From positions 1,736,001 to 1,800,000 of the forward strand of contig NZ_LJJF01000001.1 in NCBI RefSeq assembly GCF_001625365.1: a DNA stretch of 64,000 bases. Direction: 5' to 3'. Origin of the DNA: Streptomyces sp. MJM8645 (GTDB taxonomy: Bacteria; Actinomycetota; Actinomycetes; Streptomycetales; Streptomycetaceae). A program made the translations under genes and the position numbers. The notes below the pieces were generated by a model that saw only the letters and a program-made list of their open reading frames with translations, searched no databases and was not told the DNA's origin. Each line of letters opens with the position of its first letter. The first letter of the stretch is position 1. This document shows positions 1-12,581 of the stretch, one piece after another.

Positions 1-465
1 CACGCCAGGGCGCTCTACGAGATGCGCCGACCGTGGCTCTCGGTGGAGCAGATCGACCAGTGGGTGGCCGCCAGGTTGGCGCGCCAGGAGATCCTGACCA
101 AGTGGCCCTTGCCGGTCATGAGCTGGGTGCTGGACGAGAGCCTGCTGAGGCGCCCCCTCGGCGGCTGGGACACCCACCAGGAGCAGCTGCGCCACCTGCT
201 CAAGGTGGCCGAGATCCGCGGCCTCGAACTCCAGGTCATGCCCCTCGACAGGGTTCAGAACGCGGGCATGGGAGGGCCGTTCACGCTGCTCACCCCGCCC
301 GGGCGCCCTCAGATCGCGTACGTGGAGATCCAGCACGTCAATAGGCTGATCACGGACCCGGAGGAAGTCCGTAAGATGGCCGCACGGTACGGCACCCTCA
401 GGGCGCAGGCGCTCGACATGAGGGAGTCCTTGGCCTTGATCGAGATGATCCTGGGAGAGCGGTGA
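1..465 (+). CDS. DUF5753 (XRE-type regulator) C-terminal part, 5' end outside window
   Basis: The frame is open from base 1 and ends with TGA at 463-465, so 154 residues are visible and the N-terminus lies upstream of the window. The visible part starts with ARALYEMRR and matches the C-terminal DUF5753 domain that actinomycete XRE-type regulators carry behind an N-terminal helix-turn-helix; that HTH is not in view. The stop overlaps by four bases the GTG of the DUF397 gene that follows. This regulator/DUF397 pairing is the usual arrangement in streptomycetes (the WhiJ/BldB-like family setting), where the DUF397 protein is thought to modulate the DNA-binding partner. Which genes it controls cannot be read here. 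Confidence 0.85.
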   Translation, partial: HARALYEMRRPWLSVEQIDQWVAARLARQEILTKWPLPVMSWVLDESLLRRPLGGWDTHQEQLRHLLKVAEIRGLELQVMPLDRVQNAGMGGPFTLLTPPGRPQIAYVEIQHVNRLITDPEEVRKMAARYGTLRAQALDMRESLALIEMILGER

Positions 466-653
466 GCATGGCCGAGCTGGCGTGGTTCAAGAGCAGCTAC
501 AGCACCAACGAGGGCGCCGAGTGCGTAGAGGTCGCCGAGACCCCTGGCGTCGTCCACGTGCGTGACTCGAAGGACAAGAGCGGTCCGCAGCTGGCGTTCG
601 AGCCGGCCTCGTGGAAGGCGTTCGTCGGCTTCGCCGCGACCGCCGAGGTCTGA
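462..653 (+). CDS. DUF397 domain protein
   Basis: A 63-residue protein with the DUF397 signature: an aromatic-K-S-S-Y-S start (WFKSSYSTNEGAECVEV), then VHVRDSKD, then LAFEPASWKAFV. The GTG start overlaps the upstream DUF5753 stop (GTGA), so the two are translationally coupled; an in-frame ATG at 468 is an alternative. DUF397 proteins are small cytoplasmic partners of XRE/DUF5753 regulators in streptomycetes (WhiJ-type systems), with no known enzymatic activity. A strong hairpin follows directly, suggesting that the two-gene unit ends here. Confidence 0.85.
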   Translation: MSMAELAWFKSSYSTNEGAECVEVAETPGVVHVRDSKDKSGPQLAFEPASWKAFVGFAATAEV

Positions 654-661
654 GCAGTCCC

Positions 662-697
662 CCAACAGCCCACCGCTAGGCAGCGGTGGGCTGTTGG
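662..697 (+). terminator. Perfect 16-bp stem-loop behind the DUF5753/DUF397 pair
   Basis: The arms 662-677 and 682-697 are perfect reverse complements around a 4-base loop (AGGC). No T-tract follows, which is common for actinomycete terminators. It lies 8 bases after the stop and 16 bases before the next DUF397 gene, so it probably separates two transcription units or attenuates read-through. Confidence 0.75.
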
Positions 698-713
698 CGT
701 ACCGTCAGAAGGC

Positions 714-947
714 ATGGGACTCGCCTGGTTCAAGAGCAGCCGTAGCGGTAACGAAGGCGCCAACTGCGTCGAGGTCGCGTGGCGCAAGAGCAGCTACAGC
801 AGCAACGAGGGCGCCGCCTGCGTCGAGGTCGCCGAGACGACCGCCGCCGTCCACGTCCGTGACTCCAAGGACAAGGACGGCCCCCAACTCACCTTCTCCC
901 CCGCCGCCTGGCAGGCCTTCGTCGACTTCGCCCCGACGGCCGCCTGA
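714..947 (+). CDS. DUF397 domain protein with duplicated N-terminal motif
   Basis: A 77-residue protein. Residues 4-22 (AWFKSSRSGNEGANCVEVA) are repeated with changes at residues 22-40 (AWRKSSYSSNEGAACVEVA). After that the single-copy DUF397 core continues with VHVRDSKDKDGPQL and WQAFVDFA. The usual family length is about 60-65 residues, so the excess is explained by an in-frame duplication of the first motif. It lies immediately after the terminator of the preceding pair and has no HTH partner of its own, which suggests a tandem gene duplication of the first DUF397 gene. The start is the ATG at 714; no strong ribosome-binding site is seen. Confidence 0.8.
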   Translation: MGLAWFKSSRSGNEGANCVEVAWRKSSYSSNEGAACVEVAETTAAVHVRDSKDKDGPQLTFSPAAWQAFVDFAPTAA

Positions 948-6514: not shown

Positions 6515-8956
6515 CTAGAGGCCCGACTCCCAGAGCGCGCGCCGCACCGTGTGCAGGGCGGTGGCGGACTGCTCCCAGCCGTGCCACCAGAACAGGCCGC
6601 CGCCGTGGCTCGCCTCTGCGGCGAGCGCCGTCAGGTGCGCCCACGGCCCGGCCGGGAGGCCGAACTGCGGGCGGGCGGCCAGGCGTTCGGCCTGTTCGGC
6701 GGCGACCGGCACCATGCCGACCACCGGCAGCCGTGGGCCGCCGGGCGCGCGGCCGGGGGCGGTGCCGGTGCCGGTGGTCGGCATGGTGCCGGTGCCGGTG
6801 CCGGTGCCGGTGAGCATCGGGTGCAGGGTGATCGGGTCCAGCAGCAGGGTCAGTTCGGCGGACGGCAGCGGCGCGGGGCCGTCGCGCCAGGTGAGGCGCT
6901 TGCCGGTGAACTCCGCATGGAGGAGAGGCTGTTCGTCGAGGGTGATGCCGTCCTCGGCCACCCTCAGCTCCGCGCCGCGGCCGCCCGGCAGCTGCACCCG
7001 GTAGCAGCCGTACAGATACGGCGGCACGGTCGATGCCGCCACGGCCTGGACGTAGGGGACGGCGACGCCGTCCACCTCGAAGCCCGCCGGGCCGACCACG
7101 ACGGCGGCCGCCGTGGGCACGCCGTCGACCGTGACGCGGACCCGCAGCGCCGGGCCGTCCTCGCCCGGCCCGACGGAGACGACCAGTTCGCGCCCGGCCT
7201 CGTCCGCCGCCCGGTAGTCGCCGACCAGGTCGGCGAGCGGCGGCACGTCCGGCAGGGCGTACTCGGCGAGTTGCACCGAGAACTCCGCCGCCGCCACCCG
7301 CCCGGCGGGCCACACCGCGCCGACCAGCCGGCGCCGCCCGTCCCGGCCGACCTCGGTGCGCAGTTCGCCGCCGCAGTCGTTGCCGTCCTCGACCCGCCAG
7401 CGCAGCACGCCGTGGTCGTGGCGCGGGGCGGTGATCCGCCGACCGTTGACGTGGATCCGGTGCCGGGGCGGGTCGGTGGCGCGGCCCAGGACGTAGACGT
7501 CGAGGTCGCCGTCCGGCGTGCCGTACAGGCCCGTCCACGGGTACAGGGCCTCGGCGAGGACGGTGTCCAGGTCGCGCCGGATGCTGCTCCCCCCGCCCGC
7601 GAGCCCGCCGCCCCCGGGCCCGCCGTCGCGCACCGATCGGAGCAGCGCGCGCGCCTCGGACTTGCGGGTGAGCAGGGTGCGCAGCCGCCGCGCCGCCTCC
7701 GGGGTCGGCCGCCGGTAGCGGCCCTTGGCGGCGGCCTGCATGGCCGCGTCCTCACGGCGGGCCAGCAGGGCGCGTTCGGCGTCGGCGAGGTCCGGCGGCG
7801 CCCAGGACGCCACCGCCGCCTCGGGCTCCCGGACGAAGCGTTCGCGCAGGGCGCCGTCCTCCCCCAGGGCGAGGACGAAGCGGGCGGCGGGCGTGTCCTC
7901 CTGCCAGTGGTAGCCGCCGGGGACGTGGAAGTCCGTGAAGCCGTCGAGGGCGGCGAGTTCGCGCGGCCCGTACTCGTCGATGTTCCGGACCGGGCCGGTG
8001 GGCGGCCGCACGGTCTGGCCGGGTCGGATCAGGCCCAGCCGTTCGAGCATCCGCGGATCGGCCGGGGCGGCGACGGCCGGGGGGAGGTACCAGGTGGAGG
8101 CGCTGGTGACGGTCCGCTGCACGGCCCGGTCCCGGAGCCCGGCGACGGTGTGCCGGTCGGTGACGGGGGCGGTGCCCCGGTAGCGGGCGCCGATGTAGTT
8201 GACCACGGGGTGGTCCGGGCCGTAGACCTCCTCCAGCCGGTCGACCAGGACGGGCAGCCGGTGGTTGAAGAACCCGGTGCGCTGGTAGCCGAGTTCGCCG
8301 ACCAGCCCGACCTGCCAGAGCACCAGGTGCAGGCCCGGGTCGATCCGCCGGCCGCGGATCAGCAGGTCCGAGGCCTCGAAGGTCTGCATGCCGGGGCTGC
8401 TCGGGTCCACGCCGAGGTCGGCGCACAGGACGTCCAGCGCGCTGATCCCCGGACGCATCACGGCCGCGTGACCCTCGCGGCGGGCGATCCGGACGGCGCG
8501 GTGGCTGGAGAGGACGAACACGCCCGGGTGGCCGTAGAAGACCGCCGCCACCCGCCGCCCGGCCCGGACGAAGTGCAGGATCGCCTCGGACATCTGCACG
8601 TACGTCAGATAGCGGTCCTTGGCGTCGTCGTAGAGGACGCCGAGGTCGTAGGAGTCGGGCCGCCAGGCCTTGATCCGCACCACCGTCACCGGGTCGGCGA
8701 CGCAGTGGAAGACGTGGTCCGCCTCGCGGAGCAGCCGCTCGTCGGCGCGGGTGAACCCGGCCGCCTCGATGCCGGAGCCGAGCACGGTCAACTCACCCTT
8801 GGGCATGGCCGGTTCGGCCGTCTCGCCGTCCCGCTCGGGGCGACGCGGCCCGGGGGCGGCGGCAATGGCCCGGGCCAGCTCCGCCCAGCGGTCCTCGTGC
8901 TCGCGGCGGGTCGGGAAGCGGTCGAAGGGGCGGCCGTACGGGCGGTTCGGGTCCAT
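6515..8956 (-). CDS. Borosin-type peptide alpha-N-methyltransferase homologue with large C-terminal extension
   Basis: An 813-residue protein. Residues about 54-295 form a tetrapyrrole-methylase (TP-methylase) fold like that of the omphalotin enzyme OphMA: ELTVLGSGIE (55-64), YDDAKDRYLTYVQMSE (109-124), FYGHPGVF (140-147), MRPGISALDVLCADLG (167-182) and TFEASDLLI (192-200). Tyr109, Arg115, Tyr119 and Tyr141 have exactly the 6-4-22 spacing of OphMA Tyr66, Arg72, Tyr76 and Tyr98, the residues used in backbone N-methylation. Residues about 357-400 (FVLALGEDGALRERFVREPE and onward) resemble the small helical borosin binding domain. The remaining ~390 residues are beta-rich and unrecognised, interrupted by a Gly-Thr repeat at about 715-735. 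The ATG lies 28 bases after the stop of a small peptide gene, the likely substrate. Activity is inferred, not shown. Confidence 0.85.
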   Translation of the reverse strand: MDPNRPYGRPFDRFPTRREHEDRWAELARAIAAAPGPRRPERDGETAEPAMPKGELTVLGSGIEAAGFTRADERLLREADHVFHCVADPVTVVRIKAWRPDSYDLGVLYDDAKDRYLTYVQMSEAILHFVRAGRRVAAVFYGHPGVFVLSSHRAVRIARREGHAAVMRPGISALDVLCADLGVDPSSPGMQTFEASDLLIRGRRIDPGLHLVLWQVGLVGELGYQRTGFFNHRLPVLVDRLEEVYGPDHPVVNYIGARYRGTAPVTDRHTVAGLRDRAVQRTVTSASTWYLPPAVAAPADPRMLERLGLIRPGQTVRPPTGPVRNIDEYGPRELAALDGFTDFHVPGGYHWQEDTPAARFVLALGEDGALRERFVREPEAAVASWAPPDLADAERALLARREDAAMQAAAKGRYRRPTPEAARRLRTLLTRKSEARALLRSVRDGGPGGGGLAGGGSSIRRDLDTVLAEALYPWTGLYGTPDGDLDVYVLGRATDPPRHRIHVNGRRITAPRHDHGVLRWRVEDGNDCGGELRTEVGRDGRRRLVGAVWPAGRVAAAEFSVQLAEYALPDVPPLADLVGDYRAADEAGRELVVSVGPGEDGPALRVRVTVDGVPTAAAVVVGPAGFEVDGVAVPYVQAVAASTVPPYLYGCYRVQLPGGRGAELRVAEDGITLDEQPLLHAEFTGKRLTWRDGPAPLPSAELTLLLDPITLHPMLTGTGTGTGTMPTTGTGTAPGRAPGGPRLPVVGMVPVAAEQAERLAARPQFGLPAGPWAHLTALAAEASHGGGLFWWHGWEQSATALHTVRRALWESGL
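6761..6813 (-). repeat. Hexanucleotide GGTGCC-type repeat coding for a Gly-Thr linker
   Basis: Two runs of a GGTGCC hexamer, interrupted around 6773-6785, encode the alternating TGTGTGTG and TGTGTA stretches in the C-terminal part of the borosin-type methyltransferase. This looks like a flexible, slippage-prone linker between the beta-rich region and the last ~75 residues. Confidence 0.7.
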
Positions 8957-8984
8957 CGGACGGCGTCAGTCGGTGTCGGCGGCG

Positions 8985-9248
8985 TCAGGCGACATCGACG
9001 GCGAAGTCCAGCTGGACGACCTGCGGCGGCGGGTCCATCAGGCCCGGGGCGTCCACCTCGAAGTCCATCTGGGTGATCTGCGGCGTGGGCTCCGTCAGGA
9101 TCGGGCTGGCCAGGTCGAAGTCCGTCCGGCCGACCTGGCGGAAGGGCCGGTCCGCGGCGGTGTCGGCGTCCAGCGCGAGATCGGCGTCCACGTCGATGTC
9201 GACGACGTCGAAGCCGAAGGCCAGGCTGCTTGCGGTCACGGTAGGCAC
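8985..9248 (-). CDS. Putative borosin-type RiPP precursor peptide with 19-residue repeats
   Basis: An 87-residue acidic, small protein directly upstream of, and in line with, the TP-methylase gene. It has no cysteine and no signal peptide. From residue 37 it consists of a 19-residue repeat: residues 37-55 (RQVGRTDFDLASPILTEPT), 56-74 (PQITQMDFEVDAPGLMDPP) and a shortened third copy 75-87 (PQVVQLDFAVDVA). Q38/57/76, D43/62/81, F44/63/82, P49/68, L51/70 and P54/73 recur exactly. The N-terminal part (AFGFDVVDIDVDADLALDAD) is a looser Val/Asp alternation and may be leader or a degenerate copy. The start GTG at 9248 is weakly supported; the in-frame GTG at 9239 is possible. The proposed role, substrate of the neighbouring N-methyltransferase, is inference from position and repeat structure. 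Confidence 0.7.
   Translation of the reverse strand: MPTVTASSLAFGFDVVDIDVDADLALDADTAADRPFRQVGRTDFDLASPILTEPTPQITQMDFEVDAPGLMDPPPQVVQLDFAVDVA
8988..9140 (-). repeat. 57-bp (19-codon) repeat inside the putative precursor gene
   Basis: Copies at 9084-9140, 9027-9083 and a 39-base partial copy at 8988-9026, read on the minus strand. The period is exactly 57 bases. The protein motif (Q-hydrophobic-x-x-x-D-F-x-V/L) is kept more strictly than the bases, which suggests selection on the peptide. Confidence 0.75.
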
Positions 9249-9479
9249 TCGACAGTCACTCGTCCCTTCGGAGCCACGGGCGTTCGCGTGTTCATGCTAC
9301 TGAACACCAGTTCGCGCCGACAGCCCCGCGGGTGCGGCTGCGGCCGGTCGGGATGGGGGCCGCAGAGGAACGCGGCCATCTCACCCGACACGTCGACGCC
9401 GAATGCCGACAGTCCCCAGCTGTCCGGGTGCGCCGCCCCCCTCGGACCGGCCCGCACCCGACGTCCTGGTCAGGCACGG

Positions 9480-10085
9480 TCAGCGGGCCGACGCCCGGGC
9501 GGCGCGGGCGGCGCGCTGGGCCCGCCGGGCCCGCTGGGCGAAGACGTCCTCCCGGCGGTCGGCGGTCTGGCGCAGGACGCGCTTGCGGTCCCGGCCGGAC
9601 AGCCGGTCGATGTACAGCTGCCCGTTCAGGTGGTCGGTCTCGTGCTGGAGGCAGCGGGCGAAGTAGCCGGCCCCCTCGATGGTGACGGCGGCGCCGTACT
9701 GGTCGAAGCCGTGCACCACCACCTCGGCCGGGCGGGCGAGTTCGGTGCTGGCGCCGGGGACGGAGAGGCAGCCTTCGGTGTCCTCGATCAGCCGGCGGCC
9801 GGGCTCGCGGGGCTCGACGACCGGGTTGAGCACGTGGCCGACATGCCGGACGCCCTGGTCGTCGCGGCAGTCGTAGACGAAGAGGCTCAGGTCCACGTCC
9901 ACCTGGTTGGCCGCGAGCCCGCAGCCGTCGGCGACCTGCATGGTGGCGAACATGTCCTCGATGAGACGGGCCAGCCGCTCGCTGCCGTAGTCCTCCCCGG
10001 TCGCCGGGCGGCAGGTGCGGCGGAGGATGTCCTCCCCCACCTCGGTGATCCGCAGGACGGTCGGGCGTTCACGCGGTTCGGACAT
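9480..10085 (-). CDS. def: Peptide deformylase
   Basis: A 201-residue metalloenzyme that removes the formyl group from the N-terminal methionine of new proteins. All three family motifs are present: motif I as GCGLAANQ, motif II as EGCLS (metal-ligand Cys) and motif III as QHETDH (HExxH, two metal-ligand His plus the catalytic Glu). The ATG at 10085 is preceded by GGGAG; an upstream ATG at 10139 would add 18 residues without similarity. The C-terminus ends in an Arg/Ala-rich tail. Streptomycetes carry several def genes, so this is probably an accessory copy. It is divergent from a winged-helix regulator and upstream of the putative borosin pair on the same strand, 231 bases away, so a functional link is only possible. 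Confidence 0.9.
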   Translation of the reverse strand: MSEPRERPTVLRITEVGEDILRRTCRPATGEDYGSERLARLIEDMFATMQVADGCGLAANQVDVDLSLFVYDCRDDQGVRHVGHVLNPVVEPREPGRRLIEDTEGCLSVPGASTELARPAEVVVHGFDQYGAAVTIEGAGYFARCLQHETDHLNGQLYIDRLSGRDRKRVLRQTADRREDVFAQRARRAQRAARAARASAR

Positions 10086-10141
10086 CGGCGCTCCCTCGTC
10101 GACACCGTCGACACGACGGCAAGGATGACGGCTTGTCATCG

Positions 10142-10964: not shown

Positions 10965-11756
10965 ATGCGCGTCAACAGCCCCCTCTGCACCCGCCAGTCC
11001 CTCGCCGCCGACCTGCGTGCCGCCGGGGTCGAACCCGGCGGCACGCTGCTCGTGCACTCCTCGCTGCGCTCCCTCGGCTGGGTCTCCGGCGGGCCGGTCA
11101 CCGTCGTCCAGGCCCTGCTCGACGCCCTCGGGCCGACCGGCACCCTCGCCGTCCCCACCCACACCGGGGACAACTCCGACCCCGCCGGCTGGTCCAACCC
11201 GCCGGTCCCGGAGGCCTGGTGGCCCGACATCCGAGCGTCCTGGCCCGCGTACGACCCGCACGTGAGCCCCACCCTGGGGATGGGCGCCATCCCCGAGACC
11301 GTCCGGATCTGGCCCGGCGCCCGGCGCAGCGCCCACCCGCAGACCTCCTTCGCCGCCCTCGGCCCGGGCGCCGCCGAGACCACCGACGGACACGCCCTCG
11401 ACTGCCTGCTCGGCGAGTCCAGCCCGCTCGCCCGGCTGGAGGACCGCGACGCCCAGGTCCTGCTGCTGGGCGCCGACTTCGGCTCCTGCACCTGCTTCCA
11501 CCTCGCCGAGTACCGCGTCCCGGGCCCGAGCGAGGACGTCTCCTTCGCCACCCTCACCCCCGAGGGCCGGCAATGGCTCACCGTCCGCGACCGGGCCATC
11601 AGCGCCGACGACTTCGCCGAACTCGGCACCGCCTTCGAGGCCGACCACCCGAAGGCCGTCCGCCACGCCACGGTCGGCGCCGCCACCACCCGCCTCTTCC
11701 GCCTCCGCGACGCCGTCGCCTACGCGCAGCACTGGCTGCCCGAGCACCGGGCGTAG
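10965..11756 (+). CDS. Aminoglycoside N(3)-acetyltransferase family protein
   Basis: A 263-residue AAC(3)-family acetyltransferase that uses acetyl-CoA to acetylate an amino group. Family landmarks are GTLLVHSSLRSLGWV near residue 25, GTLAVPTHTGDNS (about 61-73), the HPQTSFAALG segment (about 125-135) and the C-terminal FHLAEYRV. The length matches AAC(3) enzymes (about 260-290). In producers such genes can be self-resistance determinants, but chromosomal streptomycete homologues often act on unknown small molecules. It is preceded by paired DasR-like sites and convergent with a nucleotidyltransferase gene. The substrate is unknown. Confidence 0.85.
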   Translation: MRVNSPLCTRQSLAADLRAAGVEPGGTLLVHSSLRSLGWVSGGPVTVVQALLDALGPTGTLAVPTHTGDNSDPAGWSNPPVPEAWWPDIRASWPAYDPHVSPTLGMGAIPETVRIWPGARRSAHPQTSFAALGPGAAETTDGHALDCLLGESSPLARLEDRDAQVLLLGADFGSCTCFHLAEYRVPGPSEDVSFATLTPEGRQWLTVRDRAISADDFAELGTAFEADHPKAVRHATVGAATTRLFRLRDAVAYAQHWLPEHRA

Positions 11757-11774: not shown

Positions 11775-12581
11775 TCAGGTCCGGGGCGTCTTCTCCCCGT
11801 GGACGGCGGTGTACTCGGCCGCCAGCCACGGCCCGAGGTCCTCGGTGAGCACCTTGAGGACGGTCGGGTCCGCCGTCGGCGTACGGGCCACGGTCGCCGC
11901 CAGACGCATCTGCTCGGCGCGCTCCGGGTAGTAGCGGGCGAACGCCCCGGCGGACTCGGTGAGATCGCTGGTCCAGCCACCCCACCGCGGCATCACCAGG
12001 GTGAAGCCCGTCCGCACGATCCGGCGGGCGACCGCGCGACTGAGCGCCCGGCGCTCGGCGGGCGTACCGGCCGAGCCCGCCCGCTCGCGCCAGCGCGGGA
12101 GGGCCAGGGCGAGATCGCCGTTGGTCTCGCGGGCGAGCGTGGAGGTGGGGCGGTAGCGCGGCAGTCCGGCGGCGAGGTCGTCACCGAGCAAAGGCGTGCA
12201 CAGGCAGGCCACGAACCAGCCCAGATCGTGACGTTCGAGCTCGCTCAGCAGCGTGTCCGCGCTGAACAGGAGGATTCCGACACCGTTGACCTGCGGGAAG
12301 GAAGCATCGAGCCGGGATTCGAGCGCATCGGCGTCAGCCCGGTCGGCGGCGGAGGGCTCCTGCCTCAGGGCGAGCAGGAGATCGAGATCGGAGACCTCGG
12401 GGATCGCGGTGCCGCGCGGGATGCTGCCGTAGAGGTAGGCGCTGTGCAGCCGGGGGAGGTCGAAGACCTCGGCGATCAGCGTCCGGGCGGCGGCGACCAC
12501 GGGTGCGAACGCCTCGGGCACCCGGCCCAACGAGCCCTCCCGTGCGATGAAGCCGTCGTCGTCCAGTCCCGCGGTAGTCAT
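11775..12581 (-). CDS. Nucleotidyltransferase-fold protein
   Basis: A 268-residue protein with the minimal nucleotidyltransferase signature: GSIPRGTAIPEVSDLDLLLAL at about residues 52-72, i.e. G-S-x-P-R-G followed by the D-x-D metal-binding pair. A third carboxylate plausibly lies near VNGVGILLF. The fold is shared with streptomycin/spectinomycin adenylyltransferases and with MNT-type antitoxins, but the C-terminal half is not recognised. It is convergent with the AAC(3)-like gene, leaving 18 bases between stops. Whether the two are functionally linked, for example in drug inactivation, is only a suggestion from the context. Confidence 0.75.
   Translation of the reverse strand: MTTAGLDDDGFIAREGSLGRVPEAFAPVVAAARTLIAEVFDLPRLHSAYLYGSIPRGTAIPEVSDLDLLLALRQEPSAADRADADALESRLDASFPQVNGVGILLFSADTLLSELERHDLGWFVACLCTPLLGDDLAAGLPRYRPTSTLARETNGDLALALPRWRERAGSAGTPAERRALSRAVARRIVRTGFTLVMPRWGGWTSDLTESAGAFARYYPERAEQMRLAATVARTPTADPTVLKVLTEDLGPWLAAEYTAVHGEKTPRT

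What the first reader, a model, noticed from the sequence alone, without database searches (positions are those of the whole stretch)
6515..9248. Candidate split borosin system: precursor peptide plus TP-methylase in an actinomycete
The 813-residue enzyme carries a TP-methylase core with the four OphMA catalytic residues at exactly the same spacing (Tyr109, Arg115, Tyr119 and Tyr141 versus Tyr66, Arg72, Tyr76 and Tyr98). The blocks FYGHPGVF, TFEASDLLI and the YDDAKDRYLTYVQMSE region also match, which is far beyond general similarity to CobA-type methylases. Directly upstream, on the same strand with a 28-base gap, is an 87-residue acidic peptide with a repeat. Fungal borosins fuse precursor and enzyme and bacterial split systems separate them. 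This case has a separate peptide together with a binding-domain-like segment still inside the enzyme. If real, it would make backbone N-methylated peptides in a streptomycete. Catalysis and substrate are inferred.
Basis: partly seen in the sequence, partly recalled or inferred. Interest (0 to 1): 0.93.

Follow-up and report, generated by a model that had tools for sequence, protein, structure and literature searches.

The report
Two-gene peptide backbone-methylation (borosin) cassette
A Kitasatospora-type actinomycete carries a short acidic peptide gene next to a borosin-family enzyme gene, and the enzyme is predicted to add methyl groups along the peptide's backbone; this looks like a new member of a known class of bacterial peptide-modifying systems.

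Summary
An 87-residue acidic peptide (9248-8985, minus strand) lies 28 bases upstream of an 813-residue enzyme (8956-6515). The enzyme matches borosin backbone N-methyltransferases (OphMA E 2e-70, SonM 4e-39) and not precorrin methylases (0.07). The four catalytic residues sit at OphMA spacing and are invariant in 69 of 69 aligned sequences. The OphMA-type clasp is kept in the enzyme, which ends without a core.

The peptide is a conserved partner: homologues lie upstream of the enzyme in three relatives read at DNA level (adjacent in two, 2 kb away in one), and two more were found as proteins. Its DVVDIDVDADL block resembles the core of KchMA, a fused borosin from the same genus whose core methylation is published (PMC11395268). 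That paper's 'Class 2' (enzyme plus binding domain in one protein, core separate) describes this layout, so this is a new member of a known kind.

Extra findings: a tandem beta-domain that sits in the enzyme here but in the neighbouring repeat protein in Burkholderia arboris; a 19-residue repeat in the peptide; a LexA-box-like site in the promoter. Methylation itself is untested, and overall dN/dS of the peptide shows only weak constraint.

The parts
8985..9248 (-). Precursor (core) peptide gene, 87 aa, GTG start; no helical leader domain recognised
   Evidence: ORF; homologues P0124, P0125 and L003:5660-5980, L002:5509-5982, L004:3754-4083
9162..9209 (-). Acidic/hydrophobic alternating block, peptide residues 14-29 (DVVDIDVDADLALDAD): likely methylated stretch
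   Evidence: Invariant D14 V15 D17 I18 D19 V20 D21 D23 L24 L26 in 6 of 6 precursors; resembles KchMA core; 1 of 526 window frames
8994..9107 (-). Two tandem 19-residue units, peptide residues 48-66 and 67-85
   Evidence: Self-comparison, 0 of 1000 shuffles; also two units at this spacing in L003
6515..8956 (-). 813-aa borosin-type backbone N-methyltransferase
8072..8797 (-). Methyltransferase (TP-methylase) domain, residues 54-295, with Y109, R115, Y119, Y141
   Evidence: Pfam PF00590 9.5e-11; phmmer to MroMA, OphMA, SonM
7721..8059 (-). Clasp / borosin-binding-domain segment, residues 300-412
   Evidence: OphMA alignment continues to query 412 = OphMA 376; helices in the model
6788..7546 (-). 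Tandem beta-domain module, residues 471-723
   Evidence: Model strands, high pLDDT; profile also matches KchMA and the B. arboris repeat protein
6518..6751 (-). Conserved C-terminal helical tail, residues 736-813; no core-like sequence
   Evidence: Model, relatives end alike, tail profile
9290..9305 (-). 16-base palindrome GTTCAGTAGCATGAAC upstream of the peptide gene; holds -10-like TAGCAT
   Evidence: Exact in L002 and L003 promoters too; only exact copy in the own genome
9302..9314 (-). LexA-box-like CGAAC-N4-GTTC, overlapping the palindrome
   Evidence: consensus from PMC9380542 passages

Best explanation
This is most likely a split borosin cassette, in which the 813-residue enzyme, built from a borosin-type methyltransferase, a clasp segment and a tandem beta-domain, is predicted to N-methylate the backbone of the separate 87-residue acidic peptide encoded 28 bases upstream. 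Shown by sequence: the enzyme family, the catalytic residues, the clasp inside the enzyme, the absence of a core at the enzyme's end, and a conserved partner peptide. Inferred: SAM-dependent, iterative methylation of the Val/Ile/Leu/Ala amides in the DVVDIDVDADLALD block (the residues that KchMA prefers in its similar core), possibly also in the 19-residue repeats; a clasped homodimer as in OphMA; the tandem beta-domain as a docking scaffold for the leaderless substrate. No protease or transporter belongs to the conserved unit, so release of a product, if any, would depend on other genes.
Against: No methylation data. The peptide as a whole is only weakly constrained: dN/dS 0.69 to 0.88 in three pairwise comparisons and no excess of third-position changes. 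The direct BLAST match of the peptide to KchMA is short and low-complexity (E 0.004 with filters off). Only 8 of 70 genomes of the genus have a match, several of them fragments, so the cassette is dispensable and often decays. The monomer model does not reproduce the OphMA domain arrangement (rmsd 13 to 20 A).
Confidence: 0.88

Rival explanations
1. The enzyme is a borosin-type methyltransferase whose true substrate is another protein or peptide encoded elsewhere, and the 87-residue ORF is an unrelated or remnant small gene.
For: Weak overall constraint on the peptide; in CBMA156 (L004) the two genes are about 1.9 kb apart with two antisense ORFs between them, and a second copy of the upstream leader now precedes the enzyme.
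Against: Six homologous peptides share TA.SL...DV.DIDVD.DL.L and P.L..P.PQ..Q; a peptide gene was found in each of the 3 relatives of this subfamily read at DNA level; the own genome has no second convincing match (next E 0.096); the peptide resembles a proven core.
Confidence: 0.07
2. The enzyme is self-modifying, a fused (type III) borosin like KchMA, and the small ORF plays another role.
For: KchMA in the same genus is fused and shares the methyltransferase, clasp and tandem beta-domain.
Against: The enzyme ends in a conserved helical tail with no acidic/hydrophobic run; the core-like sequence is in the separate ORF.
Confidence: 0.03
3. The system is decaying and no longer active in this strain.
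For: Fragments of the enzyme in G003, G007 and others; 62 of 70 genomes without a match. The ATG-led frame that runs into the peptide in L002 and L003 is out of frame in the window.
Against: Both window ORFs are intact; near-identical intact enzymes and peptides exist (P0001 98%, P0124); the peptide GTG start and the conserved AGGGGACGA-type upstream sequence are kept.
Confidence: 0.05

Closest known systems
KchMA (WP_084224105.1), fused bacterial type III borosin, PMC11395268
   Same: Methyltransferase, clasp and tandem beta-domain homologous; same catalytic set; similar DVVDVDID-type core; same genus by the tool's grouping (G008).
   Different: KchMA carries the core at its own C-terminus; here the enzyme ends in a helical tail and the core is a separate ORF. 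37% identity over 514 columns. A tree of 25 hand-picked rows leaves KchMA outside the 800-residue split clade, on a long branch.
Split borosins of 'Class 2' (methyltransferase + binding domain in one protein, core separate) and types VII/VIII as described in PMC11395268
   Same: Layout agrees with the Figure 1 legend; a Pseudomonas mosselii protein of 806 residues (P0070, 42%, 98% coverage) is in the family. That it is that paper's PmoM is my guess from the name.
   Different: Type VIII is said there to have about 160 residues after the core; the window peptide has none. The Azospirillum and Mycetohabitans neighbours (L016, L017) do, with 187 and 178. The defining papers for types V to X are not held.
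SonM/SonA, type IV split borosin (Shewanella), PMC8429565
   Same: Separate enzyme and precursor; homologous methyltransferase (4.3e-39).
   Different: SonM is 263 residues and its binding domain sits in SonA; here the enzyme is 813 residues with the clasp inside.
OphMA / dbOphMA / MroMA, fungal fused borosins
   Same: Methyltransferase plus clasp align over residues 53-412, E about 2e-70.
   Different: Core fused at the C-terminus; no tandem beta-domain in the aligned structures (alignment stops at 412).
Burkholderia arboris plasmid locus L018 (unannotated)
   Same: 442-residue methyltransferase beside a 308-residue protein with a (TTEV)n run; that protein holds the tandem beta-domain (8.6e-9).
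   Different: The beta-domain is on the repeat protein, not on the enzyme.

Membership tests
Split borosin, Class 2 of PMC11395268 | Borosin-type TP-methylase, nearer OphMA/SonM than CobA/CysG | tested here: met
Split borosin, Class 2 of PMC11395268 | Catalytic Tyr/Arg/Tyr and SAM-site Tyr | tested here: met
   Y109, R115, Y119, Y141; 69 of 69; equivalents Y73/R79/Y83/Y105 mutated in KchMA (PMC11395268: Y73F kept most activity)
Split borosin, Class 2 of PMC11395268 | Clasp / borosin-binding domain in the same protein as the methyltransferase | tested here: met
   Sequence alignment to OphMA 376, helices at 330-410 in the model; binding itself not tested
Split borosin, Class 2 of PMC11395268 | Core peptide encoded as a separate protein | tested here: met
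Split borosin, Class 2 of PMC11395268 | Backbone N-methylation of the peptide | not testable with these tools
   Needs mass spectrometry
Split borosin, Class 2 of PMC11395268 | Clasped dimer | not testable with these tools
   Only a monomer was modelled
Type III (fused) borosin | Core at the C-terminus of the enzyme | tested here: not met
   Helical conserved tail, no acidic/hydrophobic run
Type III (fused) borosin | Core with alternating acidic and other residues | tested here: met
   In the separate peptide
Type IV split borosin (SonM/SonA) | About 263-residue enzyme without clasp; binding domain in the precursor | tested here: not met
   813 residues, clasp in the enzyme
Type VIII split borosin | About 160 residues after the core in the precursor | tested here: not met
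   Window peptide is 87 aa in all
Type VII split borosin | Definition in the original paper | not tested
   Paper not held
LexA (SOS) regulon | tCGAAC-N4-GNNCGa box at the promoter | tested here: inconclusive
   CGAAC-N4-GTTC core present, the outer t, G and a are not in the window; 89 rows for CGAACNNNNGTTC in the genome against 18 for the reversed control, so not rare
LexA (SOS) regulon | LexA binding and induction by DNA damage | not testable with these tools
   -

The most novel reading that the evidence does not exclude
A DNA-damage-inducible borosin: a mobile two-gene cassette in which LexA (or a dedicated repressor) holds down a leaderless multi-unit core peptide, and the enzyme carries, on its own chain, the tandem beta-domain scaffold that other borosin systems keep on the substrate. 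The scaffold would be an exchangeable docking module that has moved between enzyme, fused enzyme-core and substrate during borosin evolution.
Probability: 0.2. Interest if true: 0.75.

Novelty: new member of a known kind. Interest (0 to 1): 0.5.

Why it matters
PMC8429565 (2021 passage) says that none of the split borosin pathways was yet tied to a final natural product. A compact two-gene actinomycete system, in the same genus as the fused and biochemically proven KchMA, gives a natural fused/split pair with a similar core to compare side by side. The exchangeable beta-domain module is a testable clue to how enzymes without a leader on their substrate hold it, which bears on using these enzymes to make N-methylated peptides. 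The promoter element offers a first testable hint of when such a peptide is made.

Tried and rejected
CobA/CysG-type methylase: rejected. Core at the enzyme's own end: rejected. Accessory oxygenase: the Azospirillum and Mycetohabitans loci and B. arboris carry a StrG/PhyH-like gene beside the enzyme (Pfam PhyH below its cut-off); a search of 5 genomes gave 1 weak match (E 0.0038, L030), which by eye is a frame of an unrelated secreted protein; so no such gene was found for the window cassette. Conserved flanks: L002 and L004 share only the enzyme with the window at the threshold used; L003 also shares a block with window 1-941. Fold of the tandem beta-domain: whole-model searches are filled by the methyltransferase; the domain model from 6 sequences was poor (pLDDT 56.5) and was not searched; PDB sequence search of the C-terminal part gave nothing better than E 0.066. 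Viral library: nothing useful. The tandem beta-domain profile does not significantly match the large Azospirillum and Mycetohabitans repeat proteins. A mixed alignment put the B. arboris protein on the wrong columns and was dropped (A2). Exact 16-base palindrome: no excess of near copies in the genome over control (3 against 3). An early notebook line says that the CBMA156 peptide was deleted; some searches showed that it lies about 1.9 kb upstream. Papers: PMC11395268 read for parts 1 to 3 of 5 plus figure legends; PMC8429565, PMC11285071 and PMC9380542 passages only; others listings only. Three key papers are not held.

Full report
What is there. On the minus strand an 87-residue acidic peptide (9248..8985, GTG start) is followed after 28 bases by an 813-residue protein (8956..6515). 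The closest enzyme is 98% identical, from Kitasatospora sp. NPDC058397.

The enzyme is a borosin methyltransferase by sequence. Pfam gives only TP_methylase (9.5e-11). Against the PDB, residues 53-412 match OphMA at 1.8e-70, MroMA at 1.7e-70 over 53-379 and residues 54-309 match SonM at 4.3e-39; a precorrin methylase follows at 0.07. The residues of the finding are at the stated places and spacing and are invariant in 69 of 69 aligned sequences, window included; I aligned 68 of the 120 listed relatives, chosen by hand. The family of about 800-residue enzymes spans Kitasatospora, Streptomyces, Paenibacillus, Gynuella, Nannocystis, Burkholderia, Pseudomonas, Aeromonas, Massilia and Azospirillum.

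The peptide is a real partner. Homologues lie directly upstream of the enzyme in L003 (107 aa) and L002 (158 aa). In CBMA156 (L004) it lies about 1.9 kb upstream with two antisense ORFs between. Two more, P0124 and P0125 (82 and 85 aa), came from the protein search; P0124 and the nearest enzyme P0001 report the same longest-contig length, 191114. The six share TA.SL...DV.DIDVD.DL.L and P.L..P.PQ..Q. In the genomes with no intact member of this subfamily, the peptide search gave nothing (G003, G007) or only chance-level matches (G008 0.048, G027 0.289). Against this, dN/dS over the whole peptide is 0.69 to 0.88 in three pairs, with no excess of third-position changes: the two blocks are kept, the rest drifts.

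Why the peptide should be the substrate. The ORF of 814 residues in L009, from an unnamed genus-mate (G008), agrees with KchMA at 12 of 12 residues that PMC11395268 gives by number (one Methods line of that paper, 'T746', does not fit, its Results and Figure 4 do). That paper reports up to 11 methylations between residues 742 and 796. In L009 this stretch reads ...TDLDVVDVDIDAVDVDTIDVNAIEVDIDAD... The window peptide reads FGFDVVDIDVDADLALDAD. The match is one of pattern (BLAST E 0.004 with filters off), but only 1 of 526 frames in the window has an alternating run of 8 or more, and it is this one. KchMA prefers aliphatic residues in its core (PMC11395268), which here would be the Val, Ile, Leu and Ala between the Asp residues. 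The second half of the peptide holds two 19-residue units (0 of 1000 shuffles); L003 has the same unit with PQ..Q at 58, 77 and 97.

A module that changes places. A profile of the tandem beta-domain matches, at E 0.01 among 736 frames and 400 shuffled sequences, only enzymes of this family and their fragments, KchMA (1.9e-13) and the 308-residue protein beside the 442-residue methyltransferase of Burkholderia arboris (8.6e-9); no shuffle passes. So the module sits on the enzyme here, on the fused enzyme-core in KchMA, and on the (TTEV)n repeat protein in B. arboris. In Azospirillum lipoferum and Mycetohabitans endofungorum the enzyme (with the module) follows 632- and 618-residue proteins with long (V/I/T-D)n stretches and tails of 187 and 178 residues. 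My inference is that the module helps to hold the substrate near the clasp.

Promoter. Upstream of the peptide, window, L002 and L003 share CTGTN2GN2... more exactly CTGT, then CGAAC-N4-GTTCAGTAGCATGAAC, with all three differing in the 4-base spacer (TGGT, GCCC, AGGG); the CBMA156 copy has one change in the left half-site and a changed right end. The exact palindrome GTTCAGTAGCATGAAC occurs once in the own genome. CGAAC-N4-GTTC fits the core of the Streptomyces venezuelae LexA consensus tCGAAC-N4-GNNCGa (PMC9380542, passages), and the own lexA region holds TCGAACGTGTGTTT, identical to the lexA-2 box listed there. But the pattern is common in the genome (89 rows, some of them one site on both strands, against 18 for the reversed control), and the outer consensus bases are not met. 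It is a lead, not a result.

Distribution. 8 of 70 genus genomes and 6 of 101 family genomes (drawn evenly; overlapping sets) have a match; several are fragments. A tree of 25 hand-picked rows puts the window in an actinomycete clade (6 rows, 100/99); KchMA and B. arboris are on long branches outside the 22-row clade, whose support is 85/97, so their exact place is open.

Novelty. PMC11395268 (Figure 1 legend) already has a class with methyltransferase and binding domain in one protein and a separate core, and PMC8429565 reports a validated split borosin of a Streptomyces strain (passages). The window is therefore a new member of a known kind. What I did not see in the texts read is the leaderless peptide with two blocks, the movable beta-domain and the promoter element; the original surveys of split borosin types are not held, so these may be known.

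Noticed in passing
window 9302-9314 and 9290-9305: LexA-box-like CGAAC-N4-GTTC and a 16-base palindrome in the peptide promoter, half-sites kept and spacer varied in L002 and L003.
   Followed up: partly
L004:3754-5956: In Streptomyces sp. CBMA156 two antisense ORFs lie between peptide and enzyme, and a second, degenerate copy of the promoter/leader precedes the enzyme.
   Followed up: partly
L016:411-9119, L017:2160-8923: Borosin-type enzymes on Azospirillum and Mycetohabitans megaplasmids preceded by large proteins, one each with long (V/I/T-D)n stretches, and followed by a gene annotated StrG.
   Followed up: partly
L018:5989-8950: Unannotated Burkholderia arboris plasmid locus: 442-aa methyltransferase, 308-aa protein with tandem beta-domain and (TTEV)n, and a PhyH-like gene.
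   Followed up: partly
window 6740-6830: Low-complexity (TG)n stretch in the enzyme, pLDDT under 50, present in P0001 and absent from P0003: a strain-level repeat expansion.
   Followed up: no
window 9236-9305: The ATG-led frame that runs into the peptide in L002 and L003 is shifted by two bases in the window, so the GTG start is the likelier one.
   Followed up: partly
L027, L029 (G107), L012 (G027), L028 (G145): More distant borosin-like or TP-methylase genes in other members of the family, not characterised.
   Followed up: no
window 9480-10139, 10965-11756, 11775-12581: Peptide deformylase, aminoglycoside 3-N-acetyltransferase-type and nucleotidyltransferase-type genes nearby; none found beside the cassette in L002 or L004.
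   Followed up: partly
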